In this document: one piece after another, positions 12,453 through 41,133 of the stretch
Numbering within the stretch: the first letter of the stretch is position 1
Layout of the letters: the number at the start of each line of letters is the position of its first letter
Source of the DNA: a virus
Virus record (IMG/VR): IMGVR_UViG_3300003873_000004
Location: 31,269 to 95,268 of that record
Reading direction: 5' to 3' (one strand)
DNA: 64,000 bases
Made by a program: the position numbers and the translations under genes
Notes under the pieces: generated by a model
Told to the model about the DNA's origin: nothing
Databases searched by the model: none
The model's input: the letters and a program-made list of their open reading frames with translations, nothing else

Positions 12453-13364
12453 ATGGCACAAGAAGTATCAATTACAGATTTTGAAAAGGGCGTTCTTGCT
12501 GAATATGGAACCAACGAATTATGTCGTCGAAAGATTGTTGAGTTTGCTAAGAAATATGATTACCGGGTTCCAAAACAGGTTTGGAATAACAAAACGTCAG
12601 AGAAGCGCGGCGCGACATATATTGTATCGGAACAACAAGTAACCAAGACTCAGACAGTAGATCAGAGTCAGCTAGTTGAAACACCAATAGCGGTAAAACC
12701 AAAGGCTGAAGTCGAAATGGTCGGTGGTATCAAAGCTATCCGTAGTACGGAAACACGTTACACCATCGACAAAGATCCAAACTTCATCCGTTGGGGCAAC
12801 TTTTCAGACTTTCGAGCAATCATCAAAGCAAATCGTTTCTTTCCCACTTTTGTCACTGGGTTGTCTGGTAACGGTAAGACTACAGGAATCGAGCAGGCTT
12901 GCGCGGCAGAGGGTCGAGAATGTATTCGATTCAACTTCACTCGTGAAACTGGTGCGGACGATTTGCTTGGCGGGCTTAGGCTGATTGACGGAGATACTGT
13001 TTTTCAGTATGGTCCGATTGCTGAGGCATATATGCGTGGAGCAATCCTTATACTGGACGAATGTCTAGAAGAAAACGAAGAGGTTCGAGTTGGAAAGGTG
13101 AACGAATGGGTTCCAATGAAACTCAAGGATATGAATTTTGGCCAAACTTACCCTGTAGTGTCATTTAATCAAGATACTGGAAAGTTTGAAAACGATACGG
13201 CTTCTATTATTTCGGATAAAGATGACGATCTTTACGAAGTTGAATTGGAAGATGGTTCGACAGTTGTTGTAAACTCGAAGCATCCGTTTGTGGTTGGCGA
13301 CGGCAAAGAAACCAAAACAATAGAAGATGGACTTATTGTAGGTGCCGAAGTGGTCGTTGCTTAA
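12453..13364 (+). CDS. CobS/MoxR-like AAA+ ATPase, N-terminal half fused to an N-terminal split intein
   Basis: Residues 1-203 are the N-extein of an AAA+ ATPase: Walker A is GLSGNGKTTGIEQA (about 134) and it stops inside Walker B at ILILDE. Residue 204 is Cys and begins 100 residues of intein: CLEENEEVRVG (block A), a DDDLYEVELEDGSTVVVNS region and SKHPFVVGDG (block B), ending VGAEVVVA and a stop. The rest of the intein and of the ATPase is at 14617-15285. Trans-splicing should rebuild LILDE-CDLADARI and a 387-residue ATPase, the likely partner of the CobT-like VWA protein. Confidence 0.9.
   Translation: MAQEVSITDFEKGVLAEYGTNELCRRKIVEFAKKYDYRVPKQVWNNKTSEKRGATYIVSEQQVTKTQTVDQSQLVETPIAVKPKAEVEMVGGIKAIRSTETRYTIDKDPNFIRWGNFSDFRAIIKANRFFPTFVTGLSGNGKTTGIEQACAAEGRECIRFNFTRETGADDLLGGLRLIDGDTVFQYGPIAEAYMRGAILILDECLEENEEVRVGKVNEWVPMKLKDMNFGQTYPVVSFNQDTGKFENDTASIISDKDDDLYEVELEDGSTVVVNSKHPFVVGDGKETKTIEDGLIVGAEVVVA
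13062..13361 (+). other. Split intein, N-terminal part (IntN, 100 residues)
   Basis: Starts with the catalytic Cys right after LILDE and contains the block B sequence NSKHPF. There is no C-terminal splice block in this gene. Confidence 0.88.
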
Positions 13365-13391
13365 TTCATGTAATTCCAAAAACTGAAATTA

Positions 13392-13399
13392 TATAAATA
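13392..13399 (+). promoter_or_regulatory. Late promoter TATAAATA
   Basis: A perfect T4-type late -10 element, followed by AAGAT and the ATG of the endonuclease gene. Late, leaderless expression of the endonuclease is implied. Confidence 0.68.
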
Positions 13400-13404
13400 A
13401 AGAT

Positions 13405-14553
13405 ATGGATATAAATTATATAAACTTCGTTAAAGAAAATTTGGATTGGTATATAGAAAATGTTACGATTCCTGGGACAGTAGACATATATGATGGTGTT
13501 TATCACAATAGGTCTATTGCCCGGGACAAGTATAAAGAAATACAGCAAATAGATGTCGAGAAAGCTTGCCCAACGTGTGGTAAGAAATTCACCAGAAATA
13601 TTCGACACAAGAAAATATATTGTGGTTCCACCTGTCGTTATGGAGCAAAGAGGTCGACAAAGAAATATAGAACAAGAGAGAAAACCAACATCGTAACATA
13701 CTCAGGATTACAGGAAGTTCTCACAGAACTCAGAAAAATTAACGCTATCGAATATTTAAAAAACTACACCTTCCAAAATAAACCAATACAAAAGACAAAC
13801 ACCAAGAAAATCCGAGAGATACTTACGTTGTTTTCTAAAGACGACACCTTCGATGTTATTTTTGTAGACGGTTCGTTTGGGAAGATACCAGTGAAAAGAA
13901 CCCAGTTTTCTGAGGATTATTTAGCAAAGGCCATAAAATTAGGCATTCTCAACGAAGGTTCATCATACGACGAAATATACAAAACGAAATTTCCAGACGC
14001 GTATGCCAAATGTATAAAATGCGGAAATGACTTTTTGAAATACAAATATAGTCAAACCGAGAAACGGTTAATTAGGAATATTATGTATGACCTTTGTTCT
14101 TATAAATGTATATGTGATTCAAGAAATGAATTATATCCAGTATCAGACGAAACAAGGCAGCGGCAGTCGAACACTACAAAGTCTATTATAGCCAAAGGGC
14201 TGTTTACGCCAATCAACAATGCTATGAGGGGCAGAAAACAATCAACCAGCGAAAAATACGGAGAGGAAGTAAAATTCGATAGTTCCTGGGAGAAAAAGTT
14301 TTACGAGGAATATGAATATGAATTAAAACGAAGCACCCCTAGAATAGAATATATCTCTCCAATCGACAACAAATCCCACATATATGTTGTTGATTTTTTC
14401 GACAACAGAACAAAAACGATGATAGAAATCAAGCCGTCTTGCCACGTTTCTGATGAAGTTATAGTTGCTAAGACGGCAGCGGCAAAATTATGGGCAGAAG
14501 AACACGAGTGTACATTTAAAATTATCACGGAAAAAGATTATGATTTCTCTTGA
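13405..14553 (+). CDS. Free-standing Vsr-like (EDxHD-type) homing endonuclease
   Basis: A 382-residue protein lying between the two halves of the split-intein gene, the position where Vsr-like endonucleases such as the I-Bth0305I group occur in fractured genes. Two zinc-finger-like parts are seen: CPTCGKKF with CGSTC near residue 55, and CIKCGNDF near 205. The C-terminal nuclease domain has SSWEKKFYEEYEYE, then YVVDFF and MIEIKP, matching the E...D...E-x-K order. It probably cuts the uninterrupted cobS-like gene. It has its own late promoter and no ribosome binding site. Confidence 0.8.
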   Translation: MDINYINFVKENLDWYIENVTIPGTVDIYDGVYHNRSIARDKYKEIQQIDVEKACPTCGKKFTRNIRHKKIYCGSTCRYGAKRSTKKYRTREKTNIVTYSGLQEVLTELRKINAIEYLKNYTFQNKPIQKTNTKKIREILTLFSKDDTFDVIFVDGSFGKIPVKRTQFSEDYLAKAIKLGILNEGSSYDEIYKTKFPDAYAKCIKCGNDFLKYKYSQTEKRLIRNIMYDLCSYKCICDSRNELYPVSDETRQRQSNTTKSIIAKGLFTPINNAMRGRKQSTSEKYGEEVKFDSSWEKKFYEEYEYELKRSTPRIEYISPIDNKSHIYVVDFFDNRTKTMIEIKPSCHVSDEVIVAKTAAAKLWAEEHECTFKIITEKDYDFS

Positions 14554-14578
14554 CAAAGTGTTCGAAAGGGTCTAGACT
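14550..14578 (+). promoter_or_regulatory. Sigma70-like promoter of the C-terminal CobS half
   Basis: TTGACA, 17 bases, TAGACT. The second half of the fractured gene thus has the same promoter type as the first, which may keep both halves in step. Confidence 0.72.
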
Positions 14579-14616
14579 TATTGTATTGAAAGAGACAAAT
14601 CAAAGGAGAATTTATT

Positions 14617-14730
14617 ATGGAAACAAAAAAAGTAGTTTCAATCAAAAAAGTAGGTCGCGGGCATGTCCGCAATTTGTGTGTAAACAAAAATCACACGTTC
14701 GTCACATCTAACGGAATAGTTACCCACAAT
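14617..14730 (+). other. Split intein, C-terminal part (IntC, 38 residues)
   Basis: Contains block F (HVRNLCVNKNHTFVTSNG) and block G (IVTHN), followed by Cys as the first extein residue. It is the usual length for a natural split IntC. Confidence 0.9.
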
Positions 14731-15285
14731 TGCGACCTAGCAGATGCTAGAATAATGTGCCTTCAATCAGTTCTCGAAGGCAAGCCAATTTTCCTGCCAA
14801 AACTTGGTAAGAAAATTCATCCGGCTAAGGGATTCAATGTGTTTGCTACTGCTAATACCAAAGGTAAAGGTTCAGATAGTGGGCAATTCATGGGAACAAA
14901 TGTCATGAATGAAGCATTTCTTGATCGGTTTTCAATCACCATTGAACAGAGTTATCCAGCCGCGGCGATTGAGAAGAAGATCGTCAGTAAATATGCCACT
15001 GACTATTTCGGCCATGTTCTCAGTTTGCGAGATCAGACGGTTTGTGATAACTTGGTAACTTGGGCACAGATCACCCGCAAGAGTTTCCTGGAAGGTTCAA
15101 TTGACGAACTGATTTCGACTCGTCGACTGATTGCTACGGTTGAGTCGTATGCCATTTTCGGTTCAAATATCGAAAAGAGTATTGAATATGCTACGAACAG
15201 GTTTGATGACGATACTAAGGAAAGCTTCGTGGAACTGTACAAGCAAATCGATTCTGGTATGAAAACATTTGAGGAGGACGAATAA
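14617..15285 (+). CDS. C-terminal split intein fused to the C-terminal half of the CobS/MoxR-like ATPase
   Basis: Residues 1-38 are IntC; the ATPase resumes at Cys39 with CDLADARIMCLQSVLEGK, then FNVFATANTKGKG (sensor 1) and NEAFLDRFSITIEQSYP (arginine-finger and sensor 2 region), the hallmark order of CobS/MoxR proteins. 184 extein residues join the 203 from 12453. A ribosome binding site (AGGAG) precedes the ATG. It ends 11 bases before a small secreted protein gene. Confidence 0.9.
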   Translation: METKKVVSIKKVGRGHVRNLCVNKNHTFVTSNGIVTHNCDLADARIMCLQSVLEGKPIFLPKLGKKIHPAKGFNVFATANTKGKGSDSGQFMGTNVMNEAFLDRFSITIEQSYPAAAIEKKIVSKYATDYFGHVLSLRDQTVCDNLVTWAQITRKSFLEGSIDELISTRRLIATVESYAIFGSNIEKSIEYATNRFDDDTKESFVELYKQIDSGMKTFEEDE

Positions 15286-19347: not shown

Positions 19348-19890
19348 ATGTTTGAAATTTCAAAGAATTTTCAAATTTGTTATGCACATAGAGTATTTTC
19401 TCAGAATGTAAATGAGAAGTATTCTGGGTCTTCTGATTGTCCATGTCAAAAAATTCATGGGCATGGAGGAGTCATTACGGTAAGTTTATCTGCTCCTAGT
19501 TTAGACACTAGAGGATTTGTTATTGACTATAAGGAATTATCATTCGTTCGAGATTTTCTTGATAATAACATCGACCACAGGTTTATTATATCAGATTTGG
19601 ACCCAGGGTTTTTGAGATTGGTCGGCTATACCCCAGCACAGTTTAAAGCTATGTCATCTAAAATTTCGCTTCTTGATGAAGTAGGAATGGGATATCGAAC
19701 ATTTGATGATTCTGATGTTCATTTAGATTCATTTGTGATGATAGAAAACATTAATCCAACCAGTGAGAATTTATCGAAGTGGGTTTACGAAGGCATAGAA
19801 AAGGTCATAAATTTGTCCGAATTCGATTGCACTGTGAATTATGTCGATTGGTCAGAAACAGCAAAAACACACGCAAGGTACTCTAAATGA
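19348..19890 (+). CDS. queD: QueD-like 6-carboxytetrahydropterin synthase
   Basis: Second step of 7-deazaguanine (preQ0) synthesis, converting dihydroneopterin triphosphate to 6-carboxytetrahydropterin. 180 residues with the zinc-binding His of YAHRV and KIHGHGG, the following DHRF, and the PTSENLSKWV and ETAKTHARY active-site parts. It has a ribosome binding site AAGGAG and overlaps queE. With FolE (20940) and QueE it gives three of the four preQ0 enzymes; QueC is not in the window. Confidence 0.92.
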   Translation: MFEISKNFQICYAHRVFSQNVNEKYSGSSDCPCQKIHGHGGVITVSLSAPSLDTRGFVIDYKELSFVRDFLDNNIDHRFIISDLDPGFLRLVGYTPAQFKAMSSKISLLDEVGMGYRTFDDSDVHLDSFVMIENINPTSENLSKWVYEGIEKVINLSEFDCTVNYVDWSETAKTHARYSK

Positions 19891-20786
19891 GCAAAGAACA
19901 AGAGATTTTAGTGTTCGAAACATTCTATTCGTGTCAGGGGGAATCGCTACGAGTAGGAGTACCGTCGATTTTCATTAGAGTGTTTGGCTGTTCTGCCTCT
20001 TGTCCTGGATTTGGTCAGCCAAAAGGGAAACTAATTCCAATCGAAGAAATGCCGCACAATACTTTCGATGCCTCTAAGATCACTAGAGTTGATCAATTAC
20101 CTGTTTCGAATATTGGATGTGATTCGGCGGCAGCATGGTCGAAGAAATATCGACACTTGGCTAAGAAATATACAGTAGATTCACTGATAGAACATATCGA
20201 ATCACTTGTTCCTAAATATGCGTACGAACGTCCAGATATTGTTATTACTGGTGGGGAACCGCTTCTACCAAAATTTCAGAAGTTCTGGGTAGAGTTTCTG
20301 AAAAAAACTCCAAATTTTTCTGAGATTACGTTTGAAACCAACGGCACGCAAAGGCTATCTACAGATTTGTTCGAAGCTATTACCAACGGAAATATCAGAT
20401 TCACGTTTTCGGTTTCACCAAAGCTGGAAATTAGTGGAGAACCACAGAGCAAGATGTTGAAACCAGAAGCAGTCACATCATACAGGATGCTATATGCTTT
20501 TGATTGGTCTGAAACTGGACATAATGTTTATCTAAAATTCGTAATTCGAGATAACGATGATGTGGAAGAAGTTTATCATTTTATCAACGAATACCAGAAA
20601 GATTACAAGGAAGAATTGTCACTCAAAACATGTGAGAAGCCTACCGTTTATCTCATGCCAGAAGGCGCCACAATAGAAGGGCTAAAGTTGACAGAAACAC
20701 AGGTGGCCAATATCGCGCTCGAAAATGGTTTCCGATATAGCCCAAGACTTCACTGCTCTTTGTTTGGCAATTCATGGGGCACGTAG
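19887..20786 (+). CDS. queE: QueE-like radical SAM 7-carboxy-7-deazaguanine synthase
   Basis: 299 residues. SCQGES and GVPSIFIRVFGC at the start and VITGGEPLL in the middle are QueE signatures. The iron-sulfur cysteines are unusual: Cys35 and Cys39 are followed by PGFGQP instead of a third Cys two residues later, and GCDSAAAW with Cys78 occurs 38 residues on, equivalent to the CDTxxSW motif of ordinary QueE. An insertion thus separates Cys2 and Cys3. The product feeds preQ0 synthesis for DpdA. Confidence 0.88.
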   Translation: MSKEQEILVFETFYSCQGESLRVGVPSIFIRVFGCSASCPGFGQPKGKLIPIEEMPHNTFDASKITRVDQLPVSNIGCDSAAAWSKKYRHLAKKYTVDSLIEHIESLVPKYAYERPDIVITGGEPLLPKFQKFWVEFLKKTPNFSEITFETNGTQRLSTDLFEAITNGNIRFTFSVSPKLEISGEPQSKMLKPEAVTSYRMLYAFDWSETGHNVYLKFVIRDNDDVEEVYHFINEYQKDYKEELSLKTCEKPTVYLMPEGATIEGLKLTETQVANIALENGFRYSPRLHCSLFGNSWGT

Positions 20787-20787
20787 A

Positions 20788-20912
20788 GACATTTTACTCT
20801 TGATTTGATACCAGTATATCAAAAAGAAATTCAAATCGTTTCTAGACACACTCTAGGGGCTAGAAACACATTAAATAAAGTTCTTGACAAGTACAGATTA
20901 AGAGTGTAGCAT
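20788..20912 (+). repeat. Five-copy intergenic regulatory module, copy B (before folE)
   Basis: Closest to copy C. It ends in the promoter TTGACA-17-TAGCAT (20884-20912). The leader to folE is about 27 bases and has a GAGAGG site. Confidence 0.8.
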
Positions 20913-20939
20913 CAATAGATCAAATTCGAGAGGTAATCC

Positions 20940-21566
20940 ATGCTCAAAGCCAATTCAAATATAGTAAAATATATGGAAGAAAACGGAATCACAAAACAAG
21001 CAATTCGGGATAATGTTGAGAAAGCATATCAGGGGGTCTTAGATGCCCTGCTGATCGACACTGAACATGATCACAATACGCGGGAAACCGCGCATCGAGT
21101 AGCTAAAATGATGGTGAATGAAATATACAAGGGCAGATATGAAGAAATGCCGAAAGTAACTTCTTTTCCAAACGACAAACATTATGATGGGTTGTATTCA
21201 GTTGGCCCTATCGAAGTTCGTGCCACCTGCGCTCACCATTCGATGCCGATTGTTGGCAATGCTTGGGTTGCTGTACTTCCGGGCAAGAGAGTTATTGGAT
21301 TATCAAAGTTTTCTCGAATAATTGATTGGCTTTCTTCCCGCCCGACAATTCAAGAAGAACTTTGTGAACAGGTAGCAGACACACTGGTAGAAGTGACCGA
21401 AGCAAAGGGGATTTATGTTGTTATCAAAGCATCTCATGGATGCTGTACCCAACGTGGTATCAAAGCATCGAATTCAAATATGACAACCGCAGTGATTCGT
21501 GGAGAATTTCGGGGCAACTCTGATTTGAAGCGCGAAGCTCTAGAACTGTTTGACGAGTTCAAATAA
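20940..21566 (+). CDS. folE: GTP cyclohydrolase I
   Basis: First step of pterin and preQ0 synthesis from GTP. 208 residues with the zinc and catalytic residues of RATCAHHSMPIVG, the GLSKFSRIIDWLSSRPTIQE segment, and SHGCCTQRG near the C-terminus. Complete and in normal order. It lies between the queE gene and a second QueD-like gene, so it probably serves DNA modification rather than folate. Confidence 0.95.
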   Translation: MLKANSNIVKYMEENGITKQAIRDNVEKAYQGVLDALLIDTEHDHNTRETAHRVAKMMVNEIYKGRYEEMPKVTSFPNDKHYDGLYSVGPIEVRATCAHHSMPIVGNAWVAVLPGKRVIGLSKFSRIIDWLSSRPTIQEELCEQVADTLVEVTEAKGIYVVIKASHGCCTQRGIKASNSNMTTAVIRGEFRGNSDLKREALELFDEFK

Positions 21567-24740: not shown

Positions 24741-24865
24741 GCCACTTTACTCTTGATTTGATAGCAGTATATCAAAAAGAAATTCAAATCGTTTCTAGAC
24801 ACTCTCTAGGGGCTAGAATATCAGTAAAGAAAGTTCTTGACAAGTACAGGACGGGAGTGTATCGT
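24741..24865 (+). repeat. Five-copy intergenic regulatory module, copy C
   Basis: It begins with the CTAAGCCA block shared with copies A and D and ends in TTGACA-17-TATCGT (24837-24865). The next gene starts almost at the -10, so this promoter either does not serve that gene or the gene starts later. Confidence 0.78.
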
Positions 24866-24866
24866 A

Positions 24867-25832
24867 TTGACAAAATTACAACCATTTAGTAGCGCGATTG
24901 CGGAGATACAATTTGGCAGTCATCTCTACAAATTAAACACAGAAAACTCTGATCGAGATTATGCTGGAATTTATCTTCCTACGATCGATGATATTTTACT
25001 CGAAAATGTAACAACGGTTATCGACATAAGTGACAATAAGAAAACAAAGAACGGCCCAGAAGATATTGATCGAAAGTTTTATTCGCTTCGAAAGTTTATG
25101 TCACTGGCAGCAAAAGGCGATACCAATGTGATGGACATGCTTCATTGCTCGGATTCGGATATTCTAACCACATCTGATATTTTTGACACACTTCGAGCAA
25201 ATCGTTCAAAATGTTATACGAAAAACTGCTCGTCGATGGTTGGATATGTGAAAGCACAAGCCAATAAGTATGGCGTAAAGGGTTCCAGATTATCAGCAGT
25301 AAACAAAGCCTTGAAAATGTGCGAGGCAATACGCGACAAATCACAGACCCTTTCTGACTACTGGGATTTTATTCCTGTATCAGAATTTTCTAAGTTGATC
25401 AGCACAGATACAGAAAACTCGGGCGTTCAAAGATTCTATGAAGTATGTGGTAGAAAATATCAGGATTGTTTGACGTTTGAAGAGTTTGAAGAAAATATGA
25501 CTGCTTTGAAATCGAAATATGGAAGTCGGGCGGAGAAAGCAGAATCTAATGATGGTGTAGATTTCAAAGCGATTTCACATGCTCTACGCGTAGGATATCA
25601 GACACAGGACATATTAACCAAAGGAACATATGGTTTCCCTCTTGATCAAACAGAATATATCAAAAAAGTAAAAGCAGGTGAAGTAAACATTGGCGATGTT
25701 CGACAAGTCTTAGAAGATTTGGTGAAAAATATCAAAGTACAGATTGAGGAATCAGATTTGCCAGAAGAACCAGACACAAAGTTCTGGGACGATTTGTATT
25801 TGAAAATTTGTAGAGATCATTACTCAATATGA
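24867..25832 (+). CDS. RlaP-like nucleotidyltransferase (DNA polymerase beta superfamily)
   Basis: About 321 residues from a TTG at 24867. The motif FGSHLYKLNTENSDRDYAGIY is typical of the RNA-repair-associated nucleotidyltransferases (PF10127 type), with D-R-D as metal ligands; a helical domain follows (FMSLAAKGDTNVMDML). Upstream in-frame codons fall in the promoter -35, so the longer start is rejected. It overlaps the next gene by four bases. An RNA repair role is inferred by family only. Confidence 0.75.
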   Translation: MTKLQPFSSAIAEIQFGSHLYKLNTENSDRDYAGIYLPTIDDILLENVTTVIDISDNKKTKNGPEDIDRKFYSLRKFMSLAAKGDTNVMDMLHCSDSDILTTSDIFDTLRANRSKCYTKNCSSMVGYVKAQANKYGVKGSRLSAVNKALKMCEAIRDKSQTLSDYWDFIPVSEFSKLISTDTENSGVQRFYEVCGRKYQDCLTFEEFEENMTALKSKYGSRAEKAESNDGVDFKAISHALRVGYQTQDILTKGTYGFPLDQTEYIKKVKAGEVNIGDVRQVLEDLVKNIKVQIEESDLPEEPDTKFWDDLYLKICRDHYSI

Positions 25833-26824: not shown

Positions 26825-27420
26825 GAATTATTGGACTTGCCGGGAAGGCGAGAAGCGGCAAAGACACTGTCGCCGGTATGATTCAAGACACATTAGAGCT
26901 AGATTTCCAGGAACTTGCCGTAAAATATGCTCTAGCTGGCCCATTGAAAGAAGCAGCAGCAAAAATGTTTGGAATTCATCTAGACGATTTCTACAACGAT
27001 AATAAAGAAACACCAAACGATTTCTGGGGCATCTCCCCTAGAGAAATTGCTCAGAAATTCGGGACGGAATGTGCTCGCGAAGTATTTCGAGAGGATTTCT
27101 GGTTGAAGCGTATGGAAATGGAAATGACGAGCACAAATTGCGACGTGTTCGTTATCACAGATATTCGATTTCGAAATGAAGCTGATTGGGTACGATCACA
27201 TGGCGGGGAAATTTGGCATGTTGTCCGACCTTCTATTGGTGATGGTGTTGTTCGAGATCACGCATCAGAAGCGGGAATTGAATTTGTTGAAGGTGACGTT
27301 TCTATTTCAAATGACGGTTCATTGCCGCAGCTAGAAAAACGTGTCCTGACCTTTTTAGATAATATCTTGACAAAAACTAAGATTTCTGATAGTCTCAGCG
27401 TAGAGAAGGAGAACAAATGA
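26821..27420 (+). CDS. Deoxynucleoside monophosphate kinase (T4 gp1-like)
   Basis: 199 residues. The P-loop GLAGKARSGKDTVAG, DIRFRNEADWVRSHGGEIWHVVRP and the C-terminal VSISNDGSLPQLEK match the phage dNMP kinase family. It supplies dNDPs for replication. It overlaps gp43 by four bases. Confidence 0.87.
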   Translation: MRIIGLAGKARSGKDTVAGMIQDTLELDFQELAVKYALAGPLKEAAAKMFGIHLDDFYNDNKETPNDFWGISPREIAQKFGTECAREVFREDFWLKRMEMEMTSTNCDVFVITDIRFRNEADWVRSHGGEIWHVVRPSIGDGVVRDHASEAGIEFVEGDVSISNDGSLPQLEKRVLTFLDNILTKTKISDSLSVEKENK

Positions 27421-28949
27421 CAAAATTTTACACATCAGTTGAACCCTATGGCAATGCTTTCCGTGTCAGACAGGTAGATGATGGAATCAGATCGAACAGA
27501 ATCGTTCGTGGGTTTGTTCCAGACTTATTTCGACCAACAAACGACGAATCAGAAAAGCAAGCAATCGGAATGGACGGAAAGACTATGCTTGCCAAATTGC
27601 CTTGTTCTAACGTCAGAGAGGCCAAAGATTTGATTCAACAATACTCTGGGACGTCTTTTGATGTTTATGGCTCACCAAACATGATTTCTCAGTTCATTTC
27701 GAAAACATATCCAGGAACTATTGATTTCGACCCGTCTAACATTCGAATCTTCTACCTAGACATGGAATGTTACACTAGGAATCCAGATGGTTCGAGTGCT
27801 GGATTTCCTCACTCAAAGGATGCCAAGTTTCCGATCAATCTAATTCAGGTCATTGACAGTCAAGATGTCGAGGGTGATGTTGTTAGAATTTGGGGACTAC
27901 AGCCATTCGATGATTCAGAAAGTGACATTATCTACACAGTATGTCGAGACGAGAGCGACTTACTATGTCGATTTGTACAATTTTGGCAGAGTAACTGCCC
28001 AGACGTCATGACTGGCTGGAACGTAAAAGGATTCGATGTTCCTTACATTGTCAATCGTATTATGTCAGTGTTAGGCGAAGATGAAGCGAAGAAATTGTCT
28101 CCATGGGGCGAAGTTCGTCAGCGCAATTATACAAACGATTTTCAGCAAGAAGAACAGACGTATATTATTTCTGGGGTTGCTGTACTCGATTATCTTGAAC
28201 TCTATAAGAAATACACATACCATAATCTCGAAAATTATAAATTGGACAGTGTCGCACATTACGAATTGAAAAGTAGGAAGGTAGACTACTCAGATTTAGG
28301 CTCTCTGTTGCGTTTGTGTGACGAAGACCATGATAAATTTGTGGAATATGGAGCAACCGACTCCCGGCTGATTTTACAGTTAGAACAGAAGATGAAGTTG
28401 ATCAATTTGGTATTCGAGCTTGCTTACCATAACAAGACGAATTATGCTGATACTTTTTCTCCGGTTAGATCATGGGAAGCAATCATTTTCAATACGATGC
28501 TTGATCGAAATATGTATTCTACGGTCGAAAATACAGACAACACAGAACAATTTAGAATAGAAGGCGGTTTTGTAAAACAACCAACAACTGGTAAAATGTT
28601 AGAGTGGGTAATATCAGAAGATTTTGCTAGCCTATATCCGTCGCTTATTATGCAGTATAACATTTCGCCTGAGACATATCTAGGGCAGGATTATCTTGAC
28701 GTACCACAGTTTGAACGTGAAGACTTGATAGCGGGCAGTGTTGATTTGTCGAAGTTGACAGGAACAAATATCACAATGACACCAAACAGATCATTTTTCA
28801 ATACAGAAAACGAAGGAATATTACCCTATTTGATGGGGCTGATGTATGCGGAACGAAAATCAATCAAGCGAGAAATGTTATCTGTGGAACGGGAACGAGA
28901 GATCGTTCGAGATAAAATAAGAAGCTTATCGGATGAGACTGCCGGATAG
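27417..28949 (+). CDS. 43: DNA polymerase gp43, N-terminal part (exonuclease and start of palm)
   Basis: 510 residues of a family B polymerase. 3'-5' exonuclease motifs: IRIFYLDMEC (Exo I), MTGWNVKGFDVPYIV (Exo II) and EYGATDSRLILQLE (Exo III). Polymerase motif A is EDFASLYPSLI. The frame stops after IRSLSDETAG, in the stretch between motifs A and B. Motif B and all later motifs are encoded separately at 30077-31413. The last 24 bases overlap the end of an antisense HNH gene. The two products may associate, as known for split gp43 of some T4-related phages. Confidence 0.93.
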   Translation: MTKFYTSVEPYGNAFRVRQVDDGIRSNRIVRGFVPDLFRPTNDESEKQAIGMDGKTMLAKLPCSNVREAKDLIQQYSGTSFDVYGSPNMISQFISKTYPGTIDFDPSNIRIFYLDMECYTRNPDGSSAGFPHSKDAKFPINLIQVIDSQDVEGDVVRIWGLQPFDDSESDIIYTVCRDESDLLCRFVQFWQSNCPDVMTGWNVKGFDVPYIVNRIMSVLGEDEAKKLSPWGEVRQRNYTNDFQQEEQTYIISGVAVLDYLELYKKYTYHNLENYKLDSVAHYELKSRKVDYSDLGSLLRLCDEDHDKFVEYGATDSRLILQLEQKMKLINLVFELAYHNKTNYADTFSPVRSWEAIIFNTMLDRNMYSTVENTDNTEQFRIEGGFVKQPTTGKMLEWVISEDFASLYPSLIMQYNISPETYLGQDYLDVPQFEREDLIAGSVDLSKLTGTNITMTPNRSFFNTENEGILPYLMGLMYAERKSIKREMLSVEREREIVRDKIRSLSDETAG

Positions 28950-29927
28950 TCCTCTATGTGTTTTCTGCCGTTTTGCAGTTAAGTCACAAATACCTTGAGA
29001 ACTAATATTCATATGAGAATACTTGTGTTTTATTTCATACGTAGTGCCAGTGAATTTATTTCCTGAGTCTATTTCGTACACCGTGTGAATTTTCTTATAT
29101 TTATCTATTTGTTGATCGTATTTTCTTGGTAGACTATCATCGTTTATCTTCATCCAGCCATCAGATTGACCATTAGGTTTTCTAAGAATATAGTATATGT
29201 TTACCTCCGGGTATTTGTCTGAGAATTCATGGTTTGTGCCATCGAAGCGTTCCTCGGTGTCTAAGTTATATAATGATATTTTCTTTGCTCCGTGGAACAA
29301 TCGTGAAGCCTCAGTGTTAGATTTTGTACTGTAAGTTGGTATGATGTTGTCGTGTGTGAGCATCCAGTCGTTTGATTTTGCTCCTTTATGTGATAGCATA
29401 TAATTCATGGAAACGTGTTCCCGTTTTCTGAACTCGTATACTGTACCGTTGAAGAATTTTTTCGTCTTAAGATTGTATGCTTGTATTACCTTTTTGTTGT
29501 TTGGTGATTCTTTCGCCCTTTCTATAATCCCTTCTGTCATTAGTCTTTTTGCCTCTACGCGCTGGCGCAAGGAACGATAGTTTCGGTTTATCTTTTGTGA
29601 ACAAATAAGCCCATAGGATAGATACATCTTTGTTTTACTTTTGCCCGTTGTTATTCTACATAGAAGGTGGTGAGCGAACAAATGCTCTCTGATGGATAGC
29701 TGCACAATATTATCTTCAGACTCGCCGGTTCCGGGAATAACTGCAAATTTAGATTGTCTAGGCGAGTCTAAGAAGAAACTTGCTGGAATGATGTGGTGTA
29801 ATTCCAGACGAGGAGCCTTGCTCGGAAACGCTTGTCTAGTCGTTATAAAATCGTCATAAATTTTAAGGTATTTGTTTTCTTTGAACGCTGCGAGATTATA
29901 CTCTCGATCATAAATAGATTTAGTCAT
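28926..29927 (-). CDS. HNH homing endonuclease, antisense, splitting the polymerase gene
   Basis: 333 residues. The HNH motif is LELHHIIPASFF, then EDNIVQLSIREHLFAHHLL. Three related C-terminal modules follow, each with a pattern like Y-x-L/I-x-T/S-x5-F-x-G-T-x-x-E-F/I (NGTVYEFRKR, DGTNHEFSDK, TGTTYEIKHK), likely repeated DNA-binding modules. It lies head to tail against gp43 and has a TATAAATA late promoter on its strand at 30004. Its position recalls mobE-type genes that split gene 43 in some T4-related phages. Confidence 0.88.
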   Translation of the reverse strand: MTKSIYDREYNLAAFKENKYLKIYDDFITTRQAFPSKAPRLELHHIIPASFFLDSPRQSKFAVIPGTGESEDNIVQLSIREHLFAHHLLCRITTGKSKTKMYLSYGLICSQKINRNYRSLRQRVEAKRLMTEGIIERAKESPNNKKVIQAYNLKTKKFFNGTVYEFRKREHVSMNYMLSHKGAKSNDWMLTHDNIIPTYSTKSNTEASRLFHGAKKISLYNLDTEERFDGTNHEFSDKYPEVNIYYILRKPNGQSDGWMKINDDSLPRKYDQQIDKYKKIHTVYEIDSGNKFTGTTYEIKHKYSHMNISSQGICDLTAKRQKTHRGLSGSLIR

Positions 29928-30003
29928 TTCAATACTCCATTATTGTTTTGATTAGAAGGCTGTTTGTGTTACTAGCACAGGCGGCCTTCGTTGTTTCTGA
30001 TAG

Positions 30004-30011
30004 TATTTATA
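30004..30011 (-). promoter_or_regulatory. Late promoter TATAAATA for the HNH gene
   Basis: Perfect TATAAATA on the minus strand about 80 bases before the HNH start. Transcription late and antisense to gp43 is implied. Confidence 0.6.
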
Positions 30012-30028
30012 AAAAGTTAAATTTTCGC

Positions 30029-30057
30029 TTGACAACTAATGTAAATAAATGTAGACT
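30029..30057 (+). promoter_or_regulatory. Sigma70-like promoter of the second polymerase part
   Basis: TTGACA, 17 bases, TAGACT, then ATGGAGGAAAA and the ATG at 30077. The second half of gp43 therefore has its own promoter and ribosome binding site. Confidence 0.72.
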
Positions 30058-30076
30058 ACACAAACATGGAGGAAAA

Positions 30077-31413
30077 ATGACATTAGAAAAACTAAAACAG
30101 CAGGAGCAGGATTTGACATCGAAGATTTCAAGTCTTAATAATGCTCAAATGGCTAGAAAAATCCTTTAATTTTGGAGGCTTTGGTCGGGAACGACCATTG
30201 TACATCGTGTGAATTGCTGGAAAGCTAAGTCGAAAGATATGCCAATCAGCAGCCAAGCCCACATAGGGAAGGTTCAGAGACTATCCGTAAGGAGTAGGAA
30301 TCAAGTGGTTCCGAAGCGCACGACAACCAGAACGGTTGATGATATAGTCCGATCTTGCGCGAAAGCGTAAGCTGCGAAAGCGAGGCAATAGTAACGTCAT
30401 TGTCTGAACATGTGCTAAATTCCTGTTTTGGTGCCCTAGCATCAAAATATTATAGATATAACAATTCATATATTGCTGAGTCCATAACTACGGCGGGACA
30501 AGTTGGTATCCAGTGGACAATGAGAAAAACAAATGAATATTTGAACCTTATTCTAAAAACTGACGATGTGGATTATACCGTCGGGGCAGACACAGATTCC
30601 GAATATGTTGAATTAAATCAGCTAGTTATGAGATATTTCAAAGATAAGCCAAACGCGACAGATCACGACAAAGTTGAATTTCTTGATCTGTTCTGTAAGA
30701 CCCAGCTCGACCCCGCGATTCAAAAGTCTTGTATTGAGATGAAAGATTATATGAACGCAAGATTAAACAAGCTAGATATGGAAAGAGAAGCCATATCTTC
30801 ACGTGGTTTTTTCACCGCGAAAAAACGGTACGCTCTACTGGTACATGACATGGAAGGCGTCCGCTACGCCAAACCAAAACTAAAAATCATGGGATTAGAA
30901 ACTCAGAAATCTTCTACACCAAAACCATGTAGAGATTTGCTAAAAGATATGATCATGGTAATGTTGACCAAAGGGGAAACAGAAACCCAAGAGTTCATCG
31001 AGAATGCCCATGATGATTTTATTGCTCTTGACATTGGTGAATATGCCGTCCCGCGTGGTATCAATGGTCTAGAAAAATATTGTATCGAAAATGGCAAAGC
31101 TATCAATGGTACACCAGCGCACGCTAAAGCAGCTTTAGTTTACAATATGATGATCAAACGAAAGAATTTACCGCTTGACCCAATCAAATCTGGGGACAAG
31201 TTGAAATATGTTCCACTGAAAGAACCAAATCCTTGTGGATTTCCAATTGTTGGATTCCCGTCACATCTAGGATTGCCAAAAGAATTTGGATTAGATGAAT
31301 ATGTGGACGTAGAAACTGTGTATTATAAAGCATTTTTGAAGCCGGCAGAAGCCATGCTTGGTGCTGTCGGATGGAATGTAGAGAAAACATCTAGTCTGGA
31401 GGACTTTTTCTGA
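30077..31413 (+). CDS. 43: DNA polymerase gp43, C-terminal part (interrupted by a group I intron)
   Basis: Joined exons 30077-30166 and 30415-31413 give 362 residues. The first exon ends NNAQMARKIL and the second begins LNSCFGALASKYYRY, rebuilding the polymerase motif B region (T4 RKILINSLYGAL). Motif C follows as VGADTDSEYV, then MDREAIS, AKKRYALLVHDMEG and IMGLETQKSSTPK, and the C-terminal tail ends SLEDFF, the likely clamp-binding peptide. A separate ATG at 30077 with GGAGG makes this an independent cistron after the HNH insertion. Confidence 0.93.
30167..30414 (+). ncRNA. Self-splicing group I intron in the polymerase gene
   Basis: 248 nt, without an internal reading frame. The 5' exon ends ATCCTT and its CCUU pairs with the internal guide GAGG at 30174-30178, giving the U-G pair required at the 5' splice site. 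The last intron base is G (30414). Core elements are visible: AATTGCTGGAAAGC, CAATCAGCAGCCAAGCC, AAGGTTCAGAGACTA and GATATAGTCC, as in the T4 td and nrdB introns. Splicing restores an uninterrupted motif B. Confidence 0.92.
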
Positions 31414-31640: not shown

Positions 31641-31669
31641 TTGACAAGAGCAAAGAAATAGTTTAGACT
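31641..31669 (+). promoter_or_regulatory. Sigma70-like promoter TTGACA-N17-TAGACT
   Basis: Directly after the preceding stop; drives the five small genes 31700-33032. Confidence 0.72.
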
Positions 31670-32184: not shown

Positions 32185-32435
32185 CATCGTGGTACGCTTT
32201 ACTAAAAGAAAAAGATGACAGTTTTGAACACTCTCATATGACAATAGTATTGTACGAAGGAAAAGAATACGTTAGGTTCGCTTCATATGGCAACGCCTTG
32301 TACAATACCGCTCTGAGTGTAGCCCGCGCTAACCGAGCCACTTTGTTGAAAGTTACTTGTGAGGACGAAGACGTGTTCGATTTCTTATCTGGCACATTTG
32401 TCGAAATTTTACTAGGGGCCGAATATGAACACTAA
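32181..32435 (+). CDS. Small protein, unknown function
   Basis: 84 residues (MTSWYALLKEKDDSFEHSHM). No family recognised; overlaps both neighbours. Confidence 0.65.
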   Translation: MTSWYALLKEKDDSFEHSHMTIVLYEGKEYVRFASYGNALYNTALSVARANRATLLKVTCEDEDVFDFLSGTFVEILLGAEYEH

Positions 32436-32886
32436 AGAAATATTTCTAAACGCGTTAGCCGATATTAACAAAGATGGGCTACCTTTCAGCGTACAGATTC
32501 ATTGTGTTGTAAACGAAGCAATGGAAATTCCAGAAGCAGTCAGAGCGCAGAATCCAAATCAGATCATGTTTCGACTTTCTTCTGATTTGTCGCCAAACAT
32601 ATTCTATGATTTCGATAGCCGAACATTTTCGTTTGATTGTACTTTCAGTCATAATCCTACACGAGTTTATATGAATCTTGATAATATTGCTGGAGTTGTA
32701 GACGATCTGGATAATTCTACAATGATGTTTGGCAGCATGCAAGAGCAAGTTCCGACTCAGGTTAGACCAGCACCAGCCCCACAAGCGCCAAAAGTAGAAC
32801 GCAAAGTAGAACGTGTGAAAAGTGTTCCGAAACCGCAAGCATTATTTACTAAGAAACATTTGTCGTTGGTTGTAGATAATACATGA
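32425..32886 (+). CDS. Protein of unknown function with Pro-rich linker
   Basis: 153 residues: an N-terminal domain (to about 110), then a Pro/Ala linker (RPAPAPQAPK) and a basic C-terminus. It may be a modular adaptor, but no family is recognised. Confidence 0.68.
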   Translation: MNTKEIFLNALADINKDGLPFSVQIHCVVNEAMEIPEAVRAQNPNQIMFRLSSDLSPNIFYDFDSRTFSFDCTFSHNPTRVYMNLDNIAGVVDDLDNSTMMFGSMQEQVPTQVRPAPAPQAPKVERKVERVKSVPKPQALFTKKHLSLVVDNT

Positions 32887-37357: not shown

Positions 37358-37386
37358 TTGACAAGAGCATAAAATAAGTTTAGTAT
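37358..37386 (+). promoter_or_regulatory. Sigma70-like promoter TTGACA-N17-TAGTAT
   Basis: Near copy of the promoter at 37010, including the downstream TATCGTATTGAGAGAAG block. Confidence 0.7.
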
Positions 37387-37419: not shown

Positions 37420-37815
37420 ATGAGAACACCAAATTTATTTAACATCAAGAAGTACGTTTCCAACAACTGTTATAGTCTTTTGTCGTATAGTTCTTCGTTC
37501 AAGGCTAATATTCTTAGTGGAATGTTTGATTTTGAAAAGGAAGATGCGCCCATATGGGCCGGCCCTTGGGGAGAGACTGGCGTTATCATGTTGCTTGATG
37601 ACGAAACCAACTCAAATGATCTAGAAGACGGTTACGAATCAGAAGGATACGCATCAATGGCAATGCCATATAGGATTTATCTGGCTGGTACCGATGATGT
37701 TTCATACTCAAAGGTATTTGCTACAATTGAAGATATGTATGACTGTGCTTGCTCGTTAGTAGAAACACCAACGCAGAAGCATATGTCAGAACTTGGTTTT
37801 GTGTTTACTAATTAA
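37420..37815 (+). CDS. Protein of unknown function
   Basis: 131 residues (MRTPNLFNIKKYVSNNCYSL, APIWAGPWGETGVIM). Acidic; no family recognised. Promoter and AAGGAG site precede it. Confidence 0.7.
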   Translation: MRTPNLFNIKKYVSNNCYSLLSYSSSFKANILSGMFDFEKEDAPIWAGPWGETGVIMLLDDETNSNDLEDGYESEGYASMAMPYRIYLAGTDDVSYSKVFATIEDMYDCACSLVETPTQKHMSELGFVFTN

Positions 37816-37829
37816 AAGGAGATTTCATT

Positions 37830-37952
37830 ATGACGGAACTTGAAGAATTAGAACGCTTGTTGGAAACGGAACAGATGAAGGTTGAACCTGATCTTGATTT
37901 GATTAGGGAATTAGAACAGGAAATCGATGAGGCGCAAAATGACTGTTTCTGA
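37830..37952 (+). CDS. Small acidic helical protein
   Basis: 40 residues (MTELEELERLLETEQMKVEP), one charged helix. AAGGAG precedes; overlaps the next gene. Confidence 0.6.
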   Translation: MTELEELERLLETEQMKVEPDLDLIRELEQEIDEAQNDCF

Positions 37953-38097
37953 ACTCATAGAAAAACTAAATACTTATCTACCCAGCGATGAAGTTGTCGT
38001 TTTTGCTTCGGGTGATATGTACAAGCCTGAAGAAGTAGTTAGATTCGATACATCTGTTGTAGAAATTGGATGTGGATGGGCTACAATAGAAGATTAG
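37939..38097 (+). CDS. Small protein, unknown function
   Basis: 52 residues (MTVSELIEKLNTYLPSDEVV). The plan helix - PSDEVVVFASG - CGWATIED resembles small phage proteins of unknown role. Confidence 0.62.
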   Translation: MTVSELIEKLNTYLPSDEVVVFASGDMYKPEEVVRFDTSVVEIGCGWATIED

Positions 38098-38100
38098 TTT

Positions 38101-38238
38101 AGAGTGATTCCTTAGTCGGGAATTACAGTAAGCGGAGCAGACCAGAAACAATCATTGCTCGCGGCGCAGGGAACTAGGCATGCTTCGGTTGTTGAATGTC
38201 AGTGAAGTTTCAATCGGTGGGGATTGAAATACCAATTT
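38101..38238 (+). ncRNA. Structured RNA candidate upstream of the tmRNA
   Basis: No reading frame. Three hairpins can be drawn: ATTCC/GGAAT, GAGCA/TGCTC, and TTTCAATC-GGTGG-GGATTGAAA just before the tmRNA. It may be part of the tmRNA precursor or a separate RNA; the family is not recognised. Confidence 0.4.
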
Positions 38239-38240
38239 AT

Positions 38241-38598
38241 GGGGGTGACTTAGATTCGACCGAGATCAAGATGTTTTAGTAAGCACACAGGAATAGATGG
38301 CGCCTTAATGCCAACAAAGCTCTTAACTGCAGCGAACGCCTCAAATATTTTGCGGGCAGCCGCTTAATCATTTCTGATAGTAATGCCAGTCGTGCTATCT
38401 CATGAAATGTCAAATTTAGACTGGCTAAGTTGATGACGTTTTTTCAAGTCATCGAACGAAAAACATAGAAATGATACGCCATGATCGATTTTGATATATT
38501 TCAGATTGTGGTCAAAGGTTATAAAATATGTCTAAGTGTGTAGAAAGCTTTAATTGACGATGCTCGATACAGGGGTGCAAATCCCCTCACCTTCACCA
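38241..38598 (+). ncRNA. ssrA: Phage tmRNA (ssrA)
   Basis: 358 nt. The 5' end GGGGGTG pairs with CACCTTC near the 3' end to form a tRNA-like acceptor, followed by encoded ACCA. The T-arm is AGGGG-TGCAAAT-CCCCT and the 5' segment reads GACTTAGATTCGACCGAG, as in bacterial tmRNAs. A resume frame GCA GCG AAC ... GCT TAA codes for A-A-N-A-S-N-I-L-R-A-A-A and is preceded by TTAACT, like the usual UAGUC. A phage tmRNA could rescue stalled ribosomes or tag host proteins for proteolysis. Confidence 0.87.
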
Positions 38599-38601
38599 TT
38601 A

Positions 38602-38618
38602 TGGGGTTCTTAGAACCC
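38602..38618 (+). terminator. Hairpin after the tmRNA
   Basis: GGGGTTC-TTA-GAACCCC stem-loop four bases after the CCA end; no U-run follows, so it may be a processing signal or a Rho-independent-like pause. Confidence 0.45.
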
Positions 38619-38638
38619 CACCAGAACATAGGAGAAAT

Positions 38639-39187
38639 ATGAAGTCGTTTAATGAATCGTCGTTGTCCAGAGTATGGCAGCATTTCAAAAACGATGATCG
38701 AACTGTCGTTGTTCTAACTTCGTCAAGAGAAGGCATGCTTGACACTGATGTGATCAAAGGAAACAAATATATCGCCGCCAAATTACAAAATGCTGGATTT
38801 GGGTACTTCTTTGTTGAAGGTCATTTCATCGAAAATAAAGGAGATTCAGACGAAGCGAAGGCGAAAGAAGAATCCATTTTTGCCATTGCCGAAAGGGAGA
38901 AATCAAACAAGTTGATTTCTCTAGCGCATGCTTTAGCAAATAGATACAACCAAGACGCTATCATTGTGAAGGAAGGCAAAGGAGACAGTTCCATTTCATA
39001 CTTTTTGAACAAAGATAACACAAAAACGGCACTGAAAGGTAAATTGAGTCCAGGCAAGATTGGTGACTATTATACACGGCTTCATAACAATAAGAAAGCC
39101 AACACTTTTGTTTTTGAATCTGTAAAGCATACAAAAAGTTGGATAGGAAAGGCCGAAGAGTTCACACGAATGAGCAGCGTCACCTAG
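38639..39187 (+). CDS. DUF3293-like protein
   Basis: 182 residues. It shares with the protein at 40048 the start ESSLSRVW, then AKLQNAGFGYFFVEGHFIEN, an EESIFAIA segment and LANRYNQDAIIV. This looks like the DUF3293 pattern; function unknown. A ribosome binding site (AGGAG) lies just before the ATG. Confidence 0.65.
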   Translation: MKSFNESSLSRVWQHFKNDDRTVVVLTSSREGMLDTDVIKGNKYIAAKLQNAGFGYFFVEGHFIENKGDSDEAKAKEESIFAIAEREKSNKLISLAHALANRYNQDAIIVKEGKGDSSISYFLNKDNTKTALKGKLSPGKIGDYYTRLHNNKKANTFVFESVKHTKSWIGKAEEFTRMSSVT

Positions 39188-39889: not shown

Positions 39890-40048
39890 ATGTCACAAAA
39901 AGAATACATCGCATGGTTAGAACAGGAATTGTCTAGGTATATTGTTGGTTCTTCTGATACGATGGAAGAAATCGTAGAGAAAATAGATCATGTTCTAGAG
40001 ACGCGAAACGACTTCTTAGAGAACGAAAACTTTGAAGAGGAGTGGTAA
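39890..40048 (+). CDS. Small acidic protein, unknown function
   Basis: 52 residues (MSQKEYIAWLEQELSRYIVG), behind AGGAG. The stop overlaps the ATG of the next gene (TAATG). Confidence 0.65.
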   Translation: MSQKEYIAWLEQELSRYIVGSSDTMEEIVEKIDHVLETRNDFLENENFEEEW

Positions 40049-41133
40049 TGCCAGCATATTGGATAGATAAGAAAGGAAAATTTACAGAATCGAGAGATAA
40101 TCATATTATTTCTATCATTGCGAACCCTAAAGTGTTTGGTTTCACTCTAGCGCAATTGAAAGAAACTTATGTGAAATACGATGAACATTTTGGGGCTGAA
40201 GGCAAAGCGCGACGAGAAATCATCGATGAAGCTATCAGTCGAGGATGGATTAGAGTTCGATTATATCCTAGAACTCACTGGTCTATCACTATCGCTAAAC
40301 TTGACAAGCGTGTTCGCAATGTAATTACTGAATTTTGTCAGAATTTGATTGCTGGTAAATATCCCGCTGTTCGTAATCTCGACCAATATCAACCCGTGAA
40401 ATTTACTGCTGTGAAATCCAGACAGACTAATCAAGATTATACTGTCAAAGAAATAGCTGATGGCGAGCTATTGGACGGGAAGAAGCTGGTTGAAACCCTG
40501 TTTCTTATTGATGATTATTCGGATTTTCTTGAAGAAAGTTCGTTGTCACGTGTATGGAATCAGACCAGAAAGCATTCTGTTGGGACTATTACAGCATACA
40601 GATATGCTCGTGACTGTGGTACTGGTGAAGTTTATACGAAGAACGAGAATAAATCCCGAAATGTTGTGCTTAGAGCAAAACTTCTCAAACTCGGATATTC
40701 TATTACCAAAATCAAAGGAACATATATCGAAAATTATGGTTCATCAAAGGAAATCGAAGTGTCAGAGGAGTCCTTCTTGGTGGTTGATTTGGACGACGAC
40801 GGCAAGCTACGCACTAATCTAATCAAACTCGGAACAGAGTTCGACCAAGATTCTATCACATTTCAAGAAAATTCAAACACGGGATATTTTCTAATTTCGA
40901 CAAATAAATGTGAAAGTGGATATCCGGGTCATGGAAAGATCGGAGTTATCAAGAAGCTTGGCAAAACGATGTTCGGTAAGAAAGGTGAGTTTTTCTCAAA
41001 AGTGAACGGACGGCCATTCGTGTTTGAAGAAGTTGGCGAACATTTGATCAATTTTTCAGATTTAGAAATTTCCGGAAAGCGTGGTGTTGTAGAATGGTCT
41101 AAGAAGAGTGGACAATCTGCGTGTTCGATTTAG
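40048..41133 (+). CDS. DUF3293-like protein with N-terminal domain
   Basis: 361 residues from ATG at 40048. The N-terminal half (MPAYWIDKKGKFTESRDNHI) is of unknown type; the C-terminal half is a paralogue of 38639: EESSLSRVWNQTRKHS, LLKLGYSITKIKGTYIEN and FDQDSITFQEN. GAGGAG precedes the ATG. The two paralogues flank the RNA genes. Confidence 0.68.
   Translation: MPAYWIDKKGKFTESRDNHIISIIANPKVFGFTLAQLKETYVKYDEHFGAEGKARREIIDEAISRGWIRVRLYPRTHWSITIAKLDKRVRNVITEFCQNLIAGKYPAVRNLDQYQPVKFTAVKSRQTNQDYTVKEIADGELLDGKKLVETLFLIDDYSDFLEESSLSRVWNQTRKHSVGTITAYRYARDCGTGEVYTKNENKSRNVVLRAKLLKLGYSITKIKGTYIENYGSSKEIEVSEESFLVVDLDDDGKLRTNLIKLGTEFDQDSITFQENSNTGYFLISTNKCESGYPGHGKIGVIKKLGKTMFGKKGEFFSKVNGRPFVFEEVGEHLINFSDLEISGKRGVVEWSKKSGQSACSI

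What the first reader, a model, noticed from the sequence alone, without database searches (positions are those of the whole stretch)
38241..38598. Phage-encoded tmRNA with a full tag frame
A 358-nt gene has a tRNA-like acceptor with encoded CCA, a T-arm, a GATTCGAC segment and a resume frame coding for A-A-N-A-S-N-I-L-R-A-A-A before TAA. Phage tmRNA genes are rare. It may tag host proteins or rescue ribosomes during infection, and the tag differs from the usual host ANDENYALAA-type tag.
Basis: partly seen in the sequence, partly recalled or inferred. Interest (0 to 1): 0.8.

Follow-up and report, generated by a model that had tools for sequence, protein, structure and literature searches.

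The report
Phage tmRNA with its own tag
A T4-like phage carries its own one-piece copy of the bacterial RNA that frees stuck ribosomes and tags the unfinished protein; phage copies are already known, but this one has its own tag sequence and shares the genome with a possible helper protein that would hand tagged proteins to the host's protease.

Summary
Window 38241-38598 (+) is a one-piece tmRNA gene: Rfam RF00023, 81.3 bits against a cut-off of 47, E 5.6e-30, full length. It is the only one in the 95,268-bp virus record. The tag frame (resume GCA 38329, stop TAA 38365) reads AANASNILRAAA. The alanine identity pair G3.U70, encoded CCA and long P2 helix are present. ARAGORN misses it at default and finds it, with the same ends and tag, only at an 85% threshold. 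The elbow is A18/G55 instead of G18/U55, a paired swap that held in 190 of 193 A18 tmRNAs checked. The record encodes no SmpB, so host SmpB must serve it. Phage tmRNAs are established (about 2.3% of phage genomes in a 2021 survey), so this is a new member of a known kind. Four of nine related T4-like phages tested carry tmRNA, all permuted; this one is one-piece. The most interesting lead lies elsewhere in the genome. ORF 32425-32886 weakly matches SspB, the adaptor that delivers ssrA-tagged proteins to ClpXP, and has an SspB-like C-terminal tail. That homology is below the Pfam cut-off and unproven. tmRNA and SspB-like ORF lie in different operons that start with the same promoter motif.

The parts
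38241..38598 (+). one-piece tmRNA (ssrA) gene, 358 nt
   Evidence: RF00023 81.3 bits, E 5.6e-30, full length; ARAGORN -ps85 same ends
38241..38247 (+). acceptor 5' strand GGGGGTG; G3 = 38243
   Evidence: pairs 7/7 with 38588-38594; G3.U70 invariant in 7 phage tmRNAs, pair 5 changes G-C to A-T as a pair
38252..38260 (+). D-loop AGATTCGAC; A at the position equivalent to G18 (38252)
   Evidence: sequence; A18/G55 covariation
38261..38288 (+). 5' side of the long P2 helix (CGAG, ATC, ... GCACAC)
   Evidence: pairs with 38536-38566 (GTGTGT ... GAT, CTCG)
38296..38315 (+). PK1 region, stem 1 GATGGC/GCCAAC (5 of 6 paired)
   Evidence: second PK1 stem not convincing
38329..38367 (+). tag reading frame GCA...TAA, encodes AANASNILRAAA
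   Evidence: preceded by TTAACT, equivalent to the conserved UAAnU before resume codons
38369..38425 (+). PK2: 38369-74/38404-09, 38376-80/38395-99, loop stem 38385-91/38419-25, all Watson-Crick
38432..38464 (+). PK3: 38432-37/38448-53 and 38438-43/38459-64, all Watson-Crick
38478..38517 (+). PK4-like: 38478-86/38504-12 (9/9 with G-U); possible second stem 38489-93/38513-17
   Evidence: for stem 1; stem 2 read from the sequence
38571..38587 (+). T-arm AGGGG TGCAAAT CCCCT, G at the U55 position (38577)
38588..38598 (+). acceptor 3' strand CACCTTC plus ACCA; U70 = 38592
38603..38619 (+). perfect hairpin GGGGTTCTTAGAACCCC just after the CCA, no T-run; possible processing or barrier element
   Evidence: no terminator called
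37358..37384 (+). copy (3 mismatches) of the phage's repeated promoter-like motif TTGACA-N11-ATAGTTTAGA, nearest upstream of the tmRNA operon
   Evidence: 22 copies in the window, 1.4 expected, all on + strand
37420..38097 (+). three short ORFs (131, 40, 56 aa) between the promoter motif and the tmRNA
   Evidence: no Pfam hit for the 131-aa ORF
38639..39187 (+). ORF of 182 aa downstream of the tmRNA, weak S-AdoMet lyase similarity
   Evidence: PF23780 25.1 bits, cut-off 28
32425..32886 (+). candidate SspB-like ClpXP adaptor, 153 aa; Pro-rich linker and C-terminal KKHLSLVV resembling the ClpX-binding tail
   Evidence: PF04386 E 1.2e-4 for the genome, 19 bits against cut-off 27; tail in 1 of 159 ORFs
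31641..31667 (+). exact copy of the same promoter-like motif at the head of the operon with the SspB-like ORF

Best explanation
This is a working, one-piece tmRNA encoded by a T4-like phage. It is transcribed with small early genes from a sigma-70-like phage promoter and matured by host RNases. Host AlaRS charges it (G3.U70 kept) and host SmpB loads it onto ribosomes that stall on broken mRNAs during infection. Translation switches to the tag frame, releases the ribosome and leaves (A)AANASNILRAAA on the protein, whose C-terminal Ala-Ala should make it a ClpXP substrate. The phage gains recycled ribosomes when host and early mRNAs are being cut, and control over the tag. Shown: gene, structure, tag frame, alanine identity pair, absence of phage SmpB in this record. 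Inferred: transcription, charging, rescue, degradation and benefit.
For: Rfam match far above cut-off over the full model. Independent recovery by ARAGORN at 85% threshold with identical ends and tag. G3.U70 and the paired change at acceptor pair 5 among seven phage tmRNAs. The A18/G55 elbow swap covaries in 190 of 193 A18 cases, and G18 goes with U55 in 25 of 26. The full-length nearest relative is another phage tmRNA, L014, nhmmer E 1.8e-5. Related phages also keep tmRNA. It lies in a dense + strand early-type operon headed by the repeated motif.
Against: No expression, charging or tagging data. The host is unknown. The Rfam score (81 bits) is modest for a tmRNA and PK1 is not convincing. 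A generic pseudoknot count does not beat shuffled sequence. No close relative was found in which to measure purifying selection.
Confidence: 0.85

Rival explanations
1. Tag-and-deliver module: the phage tmRNA marks proteins with its own tag and a phage-encoded SspB-like adaptor (ORF 32425-32886) brings them to host ClpXP, so the phage steers host proteolysis.
For: PF04386 match E 1.2e-4, collinear over residues 14-132. No PF04386 match in 65 other viral records searched the same way. C-terminal Lys-rich LSLVV tail after a Pro-rich linker, as in SspB of E. coli, pf16 and AH06, found in 1 of 159 ORFs. Both operons start with the same promoter motif. Phage SspB-like proteins exist in pf16 and RAY.
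Against: Score below the Pfam cut-off; the alpha-type SspB profile gives only E 0.018 with a spurious ORF at 0.023, and the gamma profile gives nothing; hhalign probability 28-47%. AlphaFold without relatives failed, pLDDT 37. The genes are 6 kb apart. The other SspB phages tested have no tmRNA over cut-off.
Confidence: 0.3
2. Decoy: the phage tmRNA mainly titrates host SmpB or competes with host ssrA, changing or blocking host tagging rather than adding a useful tag.
For: No SmpB in the record. PMC4131195 and PMC11915505 report that a TLD-only phage tmRNA (DS6A) or a molecule like it inhibits endogenous tmRNA.
Against: Here the complete tag frame, stop codon and PK2-PK3 are kept, which a decoy would not need.
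Confidence: 0.08
3. A recently captured host gene (for example from an ssrA integration site) drifting without function.
For: Phages and islands often integrate at ssrA (PMC9004378, PMC11915505).
Against: No duplicated TLD fragment in the record, no similar DNA in INPHARED and no close match among the bacterial loci at hand. TLD identity elements and tag frame are intact; the gene sits inside a phage operon.
Confidence: 0.05

Closest known systems
Rfam RF00023 one-piece tmRNA (ssrA)
   Same: whole architecture: TLD with G3.U70 and CCA, P2, resume frame with stop, downstream pseudoknots
   Different: modest score (81 bits), A18/G55 elbow, 12-aa tag AANASNILRAAA, phage-borne
Virus contig IMGVR_UViG_3300020061_000001 (L014)
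   Same: one-piece, A18/G55, full-length nhmmer match E 1.8e-5
   Different: 24-aa tag ANAFKSAVAMFKQAFVPAPAFSLV; no gp41 homologue found in that record
Permuted two-piece tmRNAs of T4-like phages (Melnitz, HTVC008M, S-CAM3, DLP_6)
   Same: tmRNA carried by related T4-like phages
   Different: those are permuted (RF04321); this gene is standard one-piece
One-piece tmRNAs in mycobacteriophage Bxz1 group and Bacillus phage G (PMC4131195)
   Same: phage-encoded tmRNA
   Different: unrelated phages; those records were not compared here
SspB of phage pf16 (gp18), RAY (gp039) and phiKZ-like phages
   Same: phage-encoded SspB-like adaptor
   Different: no tmRNA over cut-off in pf16, LucasX, phiKZ, AH06 or SNUABM_54; the window ORF is only remotely similar

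Membership tests
tmRNA (RF00023, one-piece) | covariance-model score above the curated cut-off over the full model | tested here: met
   81.3 bits, cut-off 47, positions 1-374
tmRNA (RF00023, one-piece) | tRNA-like domain: 7-bp acceptor, T-arm, 3' CCA | tested here: met
   7/7, 5/5, ACCA
tmRNA (RF00023, one-piece) | alanine identity pair G3.U70 | tested here: met
   38243.38592, invariant in 7 phage tmRNAs
tmRNA (RF00023, one-piece) | D-loop/T-loop elbow G18-U55, G19-C56 | tested here: met
   G19/C56 kept; 18/55 is A/G, a natural paired swap in 190 of 193 A18 cases
tmRNA (RF00023, one-piece) | tag reading frame with resume codon and in-frame stop | tested here: met
   38329-38367, AANASNILRAAA, TAA
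tmRNA (RF00023, one-piece) | pseudoknots PK1-PK4 | tested here: inconclusive
   PK2 and PK3 fully Watson-Crick, PK4 plausible, PK1 only one stem; a generic shuffle test is not significant
tmRNA (RF00023, one-piece) | alanylation, SmpB binding, trans-translation | not testable with these tools
   needs RNA and protein experiments
permuted tmRNA (RF04321) | 3' piece encoded upstream of the 5' piece, model above cut-off | tested here: not met
   only 15.9 bits, cut-off 47, truncated; standard order of pieces
SspB (PF04386), ORF 32425-32886 | score above the Pfam cut-off | tested here: not met
   18.1-19 bits, cut-off 27
SspB (PF04386), ORF 32425-32886 | disordered linker and C-terminal ClpX-binding peptide | tested here: inconclusive
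   PKPQALFTKKHLSLVVDNT resembles the tails of E. coli, pf16 and AH06 SspB
SspB (PF04386), ORF 32425-32886 | SspB fold | tested here: inconclusive
   single-sequence AlphaFold pLDDT 37

The most novel reading that the evidence does not exclude
The phage carries both ends of a private degradation route: a tmRNA that adds its own tag, and an SspB-like adaptor, expressed from the same class of promoter, that delivers the tagged proteins to host ClpXP. I found no report of one phage encoding both.
Probability: 0.28. Interest if true: 0.65.

Novelty: new member of a known kind. Interest (0 to 1): 0.42.

Why it matters
Why phages keep tmRNA is an open question; proposals range from ribosome rescue to recycling host proteins. 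A phage with its own tag and a candidate adaptor makes the question testable: does the phage adaptor prefer the phage tag? It also shows a practical blind spot. All seven one-piece A18 phage tmRNAs examined, this one included, are missed by ARAGORN at default, while seven of seven one-piece A18 bacterial ones are found, so ARAGORN-based surveys probably undercount phage tmRNAs.

Tried and rejected
(1) ARAGORN's miss as a sign of a false positive: rejected, it is a threshold effect. (2) The unusual T-loop as the cause of the miss: not enough, since ARAGORN finds bacterial A18/G55 genes; the cause is more likely the summed divergence of tag and other elements. (3) Permuted tmRNA: rejected. (4) Host-captured ssrA fragment: no duplicate TLD and no near-identical match. 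(5) Phage SmpB: none found. (6) Generic pseudoknot enrichment: not significant, 182 of 300 shuffles reach the total, so the structure claim rests on the covariance model. (7) Relatives of the SspB-like ORF or of the downstream ORF in viral contigs, or of the SspB-like ORF in INPHARED: none. (8) AlphaFold of the SspB-like ORF: failed. (9) A18/G55 as a novelty: rejected; G at this T-loop position is on record for Caulobacter (PMC1168896) and the swap is widespread in SAR11. (10) T4-type late promoter TATAAATA near the gene: none.

Full report
What is there. The window is bases 31,269-95,268 of a 95,268-base virus record. Searching all of Rfam over the window gives three hits: a group I intron, one tRNA and a tmRNA at 38241-38598 (+), RF00023, 81.3 bits against a curated cut-off of 47, E 5.6e-30, spanning the whole model. 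It is the only tmRNA in the record. ARAGORN at its default threshold does not report it. With the threshold lowered to 85% it reports the same ends and the same tag, AANASNILRAAA.

Anatomy. The acceptor pairs 7/7 with G3.U70, the alanine identity element from general knowledge of tmRNA and tRNA-Ala. G3.U70 is invariant in seven one-piece phage tmRNAs, and pair 5 changes from A-T to G-C as a pair. P2 (CGAG/CTCG, ATC/GAT, GCACAC/GTGTGT) is present. PK2 (6+5 and 7 pairs) and PK3 (6 and 6) are perfect Watson-Crick, PK4 is plausible, PK1 is weak. A generic pseudoknot count is no higher than in shuffled sequence, so the structural claim rests on the covariance model and the tRNA-like domain, not on that count. 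The resume codon GCA (38329) follows TTAACT and the frame ends at TAA (38365-38367).

The elbow. The D-loop has A where most tmRNAs have G18, and the T-loop (TGCAAAT) has G where most have U55. In tmRNA-like loci pulled from viral and bacterial contigs by sequence pattern, A18 goes with G55 in 190 of 193 cases and G18 with U55 in 25 of 26 (loci). These counts include related sequences, so they are not independent events. The swap is common in SAR11 and occurs in Gemmatimonadota, Anaerolineae and Christensenella. A T-loop G at this position is on record for Caulobacter (PMC1168896). It is therefore a natural paired variant and supports function. It is not by itself the reason ARAGORN fails. ARAGORN found seven of seven one-piece A18 bacterial tmRNAs but none of six one-piece A18 phage tmRNAs that Rfam finds, nor this one.

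Phage and kin. Capsid, terminase and helicase show a distant T4-like myovirus (best amino-acid identities 46-52%, to Sinorhizobium phages phiN3/phiM12 and to cyanophages). The only similar DNA found in INPHARED for the 30-50 kb part of the window is the intron, and nothing matches the tmRNA itself. Among nine related phages searched whole, four carry tmRNA (Melnitz, DLP_6, HTVC008M, S-CAM3). All four are permuted and none is one-piece above cut-off. The closest full-length match to this tmRNA among all loci held is another phage's one-piece tmRNA, L014, with a very different 24-residue tag. The gene was thus probably acquired separately from the permuted genes of its kin.

Context. A promoter-like motif, TTGACA-N11-ATAGTTTAGA, occurs 22 times in the window with 1.4 expected, all on the + strand. 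One copy (37358-37384, 3 mismatches) precedes three small ORFs and the tmRNA; the next copy lies at 39332. The tmRNA would thus be made with small early-type genes and a downstream ORF with weak S-AdoMet lyase similarity. No SmpB gene is in the record, so the host must supply it; the record is probably incomplete.

A candidate partner. PF04386 (SspB, the adaptor that delivers ssrA-tagged proteins to ClpXP) matches ORF 32425-32886 with E 1.2e-4 for the genome but only 18-19 bits against a cut-off of 27. In 65 other viral records searched the same way nothing reached E 0.001. The match is collinear over residues 14-132 and the ORF ends, after a Pro-rich linker, in KKHLSLVVDNT, which resembles the ClpX-binding tails RPALRVVK (E. 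coli), KPTLRVVK (pf16) and GPSLSIVK (Erwinia phage AH06). Only this ORF among 159 of 80 or more residues has such a tail. My own profiles gave weaker support: E 0.0027 with a mixed set, 0.018 with alpha-type SspB next to a spurious ORF at 0.023, nothing with gamma-type. AlphaFold from the single sequence failed. Phage SspB-like proteins are known (pf16 gp18, RAY gp039, PHIKZ232-like), and the five such phages checked have no tmRNA above cut-off. The pairing seen here would be new if the homology holds; I rate that a lead.

How it most likely works. The gene is transcribed early, charged with alanine by host AlaRS, loaded by host SmpB on ribosomes stalled on truncated mRNAs, and adds (A)AANASNILRAAA. 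The C-terminal Ala-Ala should still be read by ClpXP, inferred from what is known of ssrA degrons. The benefit is ribosome recycling and disposal of broken proteins when mRNAs are being cut. Decoy action, reported for a tmRNA-like fragment of the phage DS6A type (PMC4131195, PMC11915505), is less likely because the tag frame is intact.

Verdict. Phage tmRNAs are known (2.3% of phage genomes in PMC9004378; T4-sized phage Marzo, PMC8928761), so this is a new member of a known kind. The one-piece form, its own tag, ARAGORN-invisibility and the possible SspB partner lift it above routine.

Noticed in passing
32425-32886 (+): Possible SspB-like ClpXP adaptor in the same genome as the tmRNA (PF04386, E 1.2e-4, below cut-off; SspB-like C-terminal tail).
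   Followed up: partly
window, 22 places, e.g. 15658, 21571, 26437, 31641, 39332, 41369, 41488, 42748: Repeated promoter-like motif TTGACA-N11-ATAGTTTAGA, 22 copies against 1.4 expected, all on the + strand; looks like the phage's early promoter family.
   Followed up: partly
27417-31413: DNA polymerase gene split by a group I intron (RF00028 at 30157-30371); the intron region holds a 333-aa HNH-like ORF on the opposite strand (28926-29927), an unusual orientation. A 51-base stretch of the intron is 98% identical to DNA of Escherichia phages such as LAMP and KarlSchell_Bas89, there within a polymerase gene.
   Followed up: no
12453-15285 (+): AAA ATPase gene that looks broken by a split intein: N-part with intein start, free-standing TnsA-like endonuclease ORF (13405-14553, PF08722), C-part with intein end ...THN/C. 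Resembles the fractured-gene arrangement of split inteins known from the literature (from memory).
   Followed up: partly
38639-39187 and 40042-41133 (+): Two ORFs with S-AdoMet lyase similarity (PF23780; the second above cut-off), possible counter-restriction proteins; the first directly follows the tmRNA.
   Followed up: partly
19348-21566 (+): QueD-like, radical-SAM (QueE-like) and GTP cyclohydrolase I ORFs, suggesting 7-deazaguanine synthesis, possibly for DNA modification.
   Followed up: no
24837-25832 (+): RlaP-like nucleotidyltransferase (PF10127), RNA-repair related.
   Followed up: no
38096-38240 (+): 145-nt non-coding stretch before the tmRNA folds better than most shuffles (z -2.0) and holds a 9-bp hairpin TTTCAATC...GATTGAAA; no Rfam family.
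   Followed up: partly
2525-4304 (-): Transposon-like pair: resolvase-like ORF and TnpB-like ORF with zinc-finger cysteines; read from the translations only.
   Followed up: no
L014 2094-2446, L083 3892-4280: Other phage tmRNAs missed by ARAGORN at default, with long tags (24 aa ANAFKSAVAMFKQAFVPAPAFSLV; about 16-20 aa ending ...NFSNEVAMAA).
   Followed up: partly
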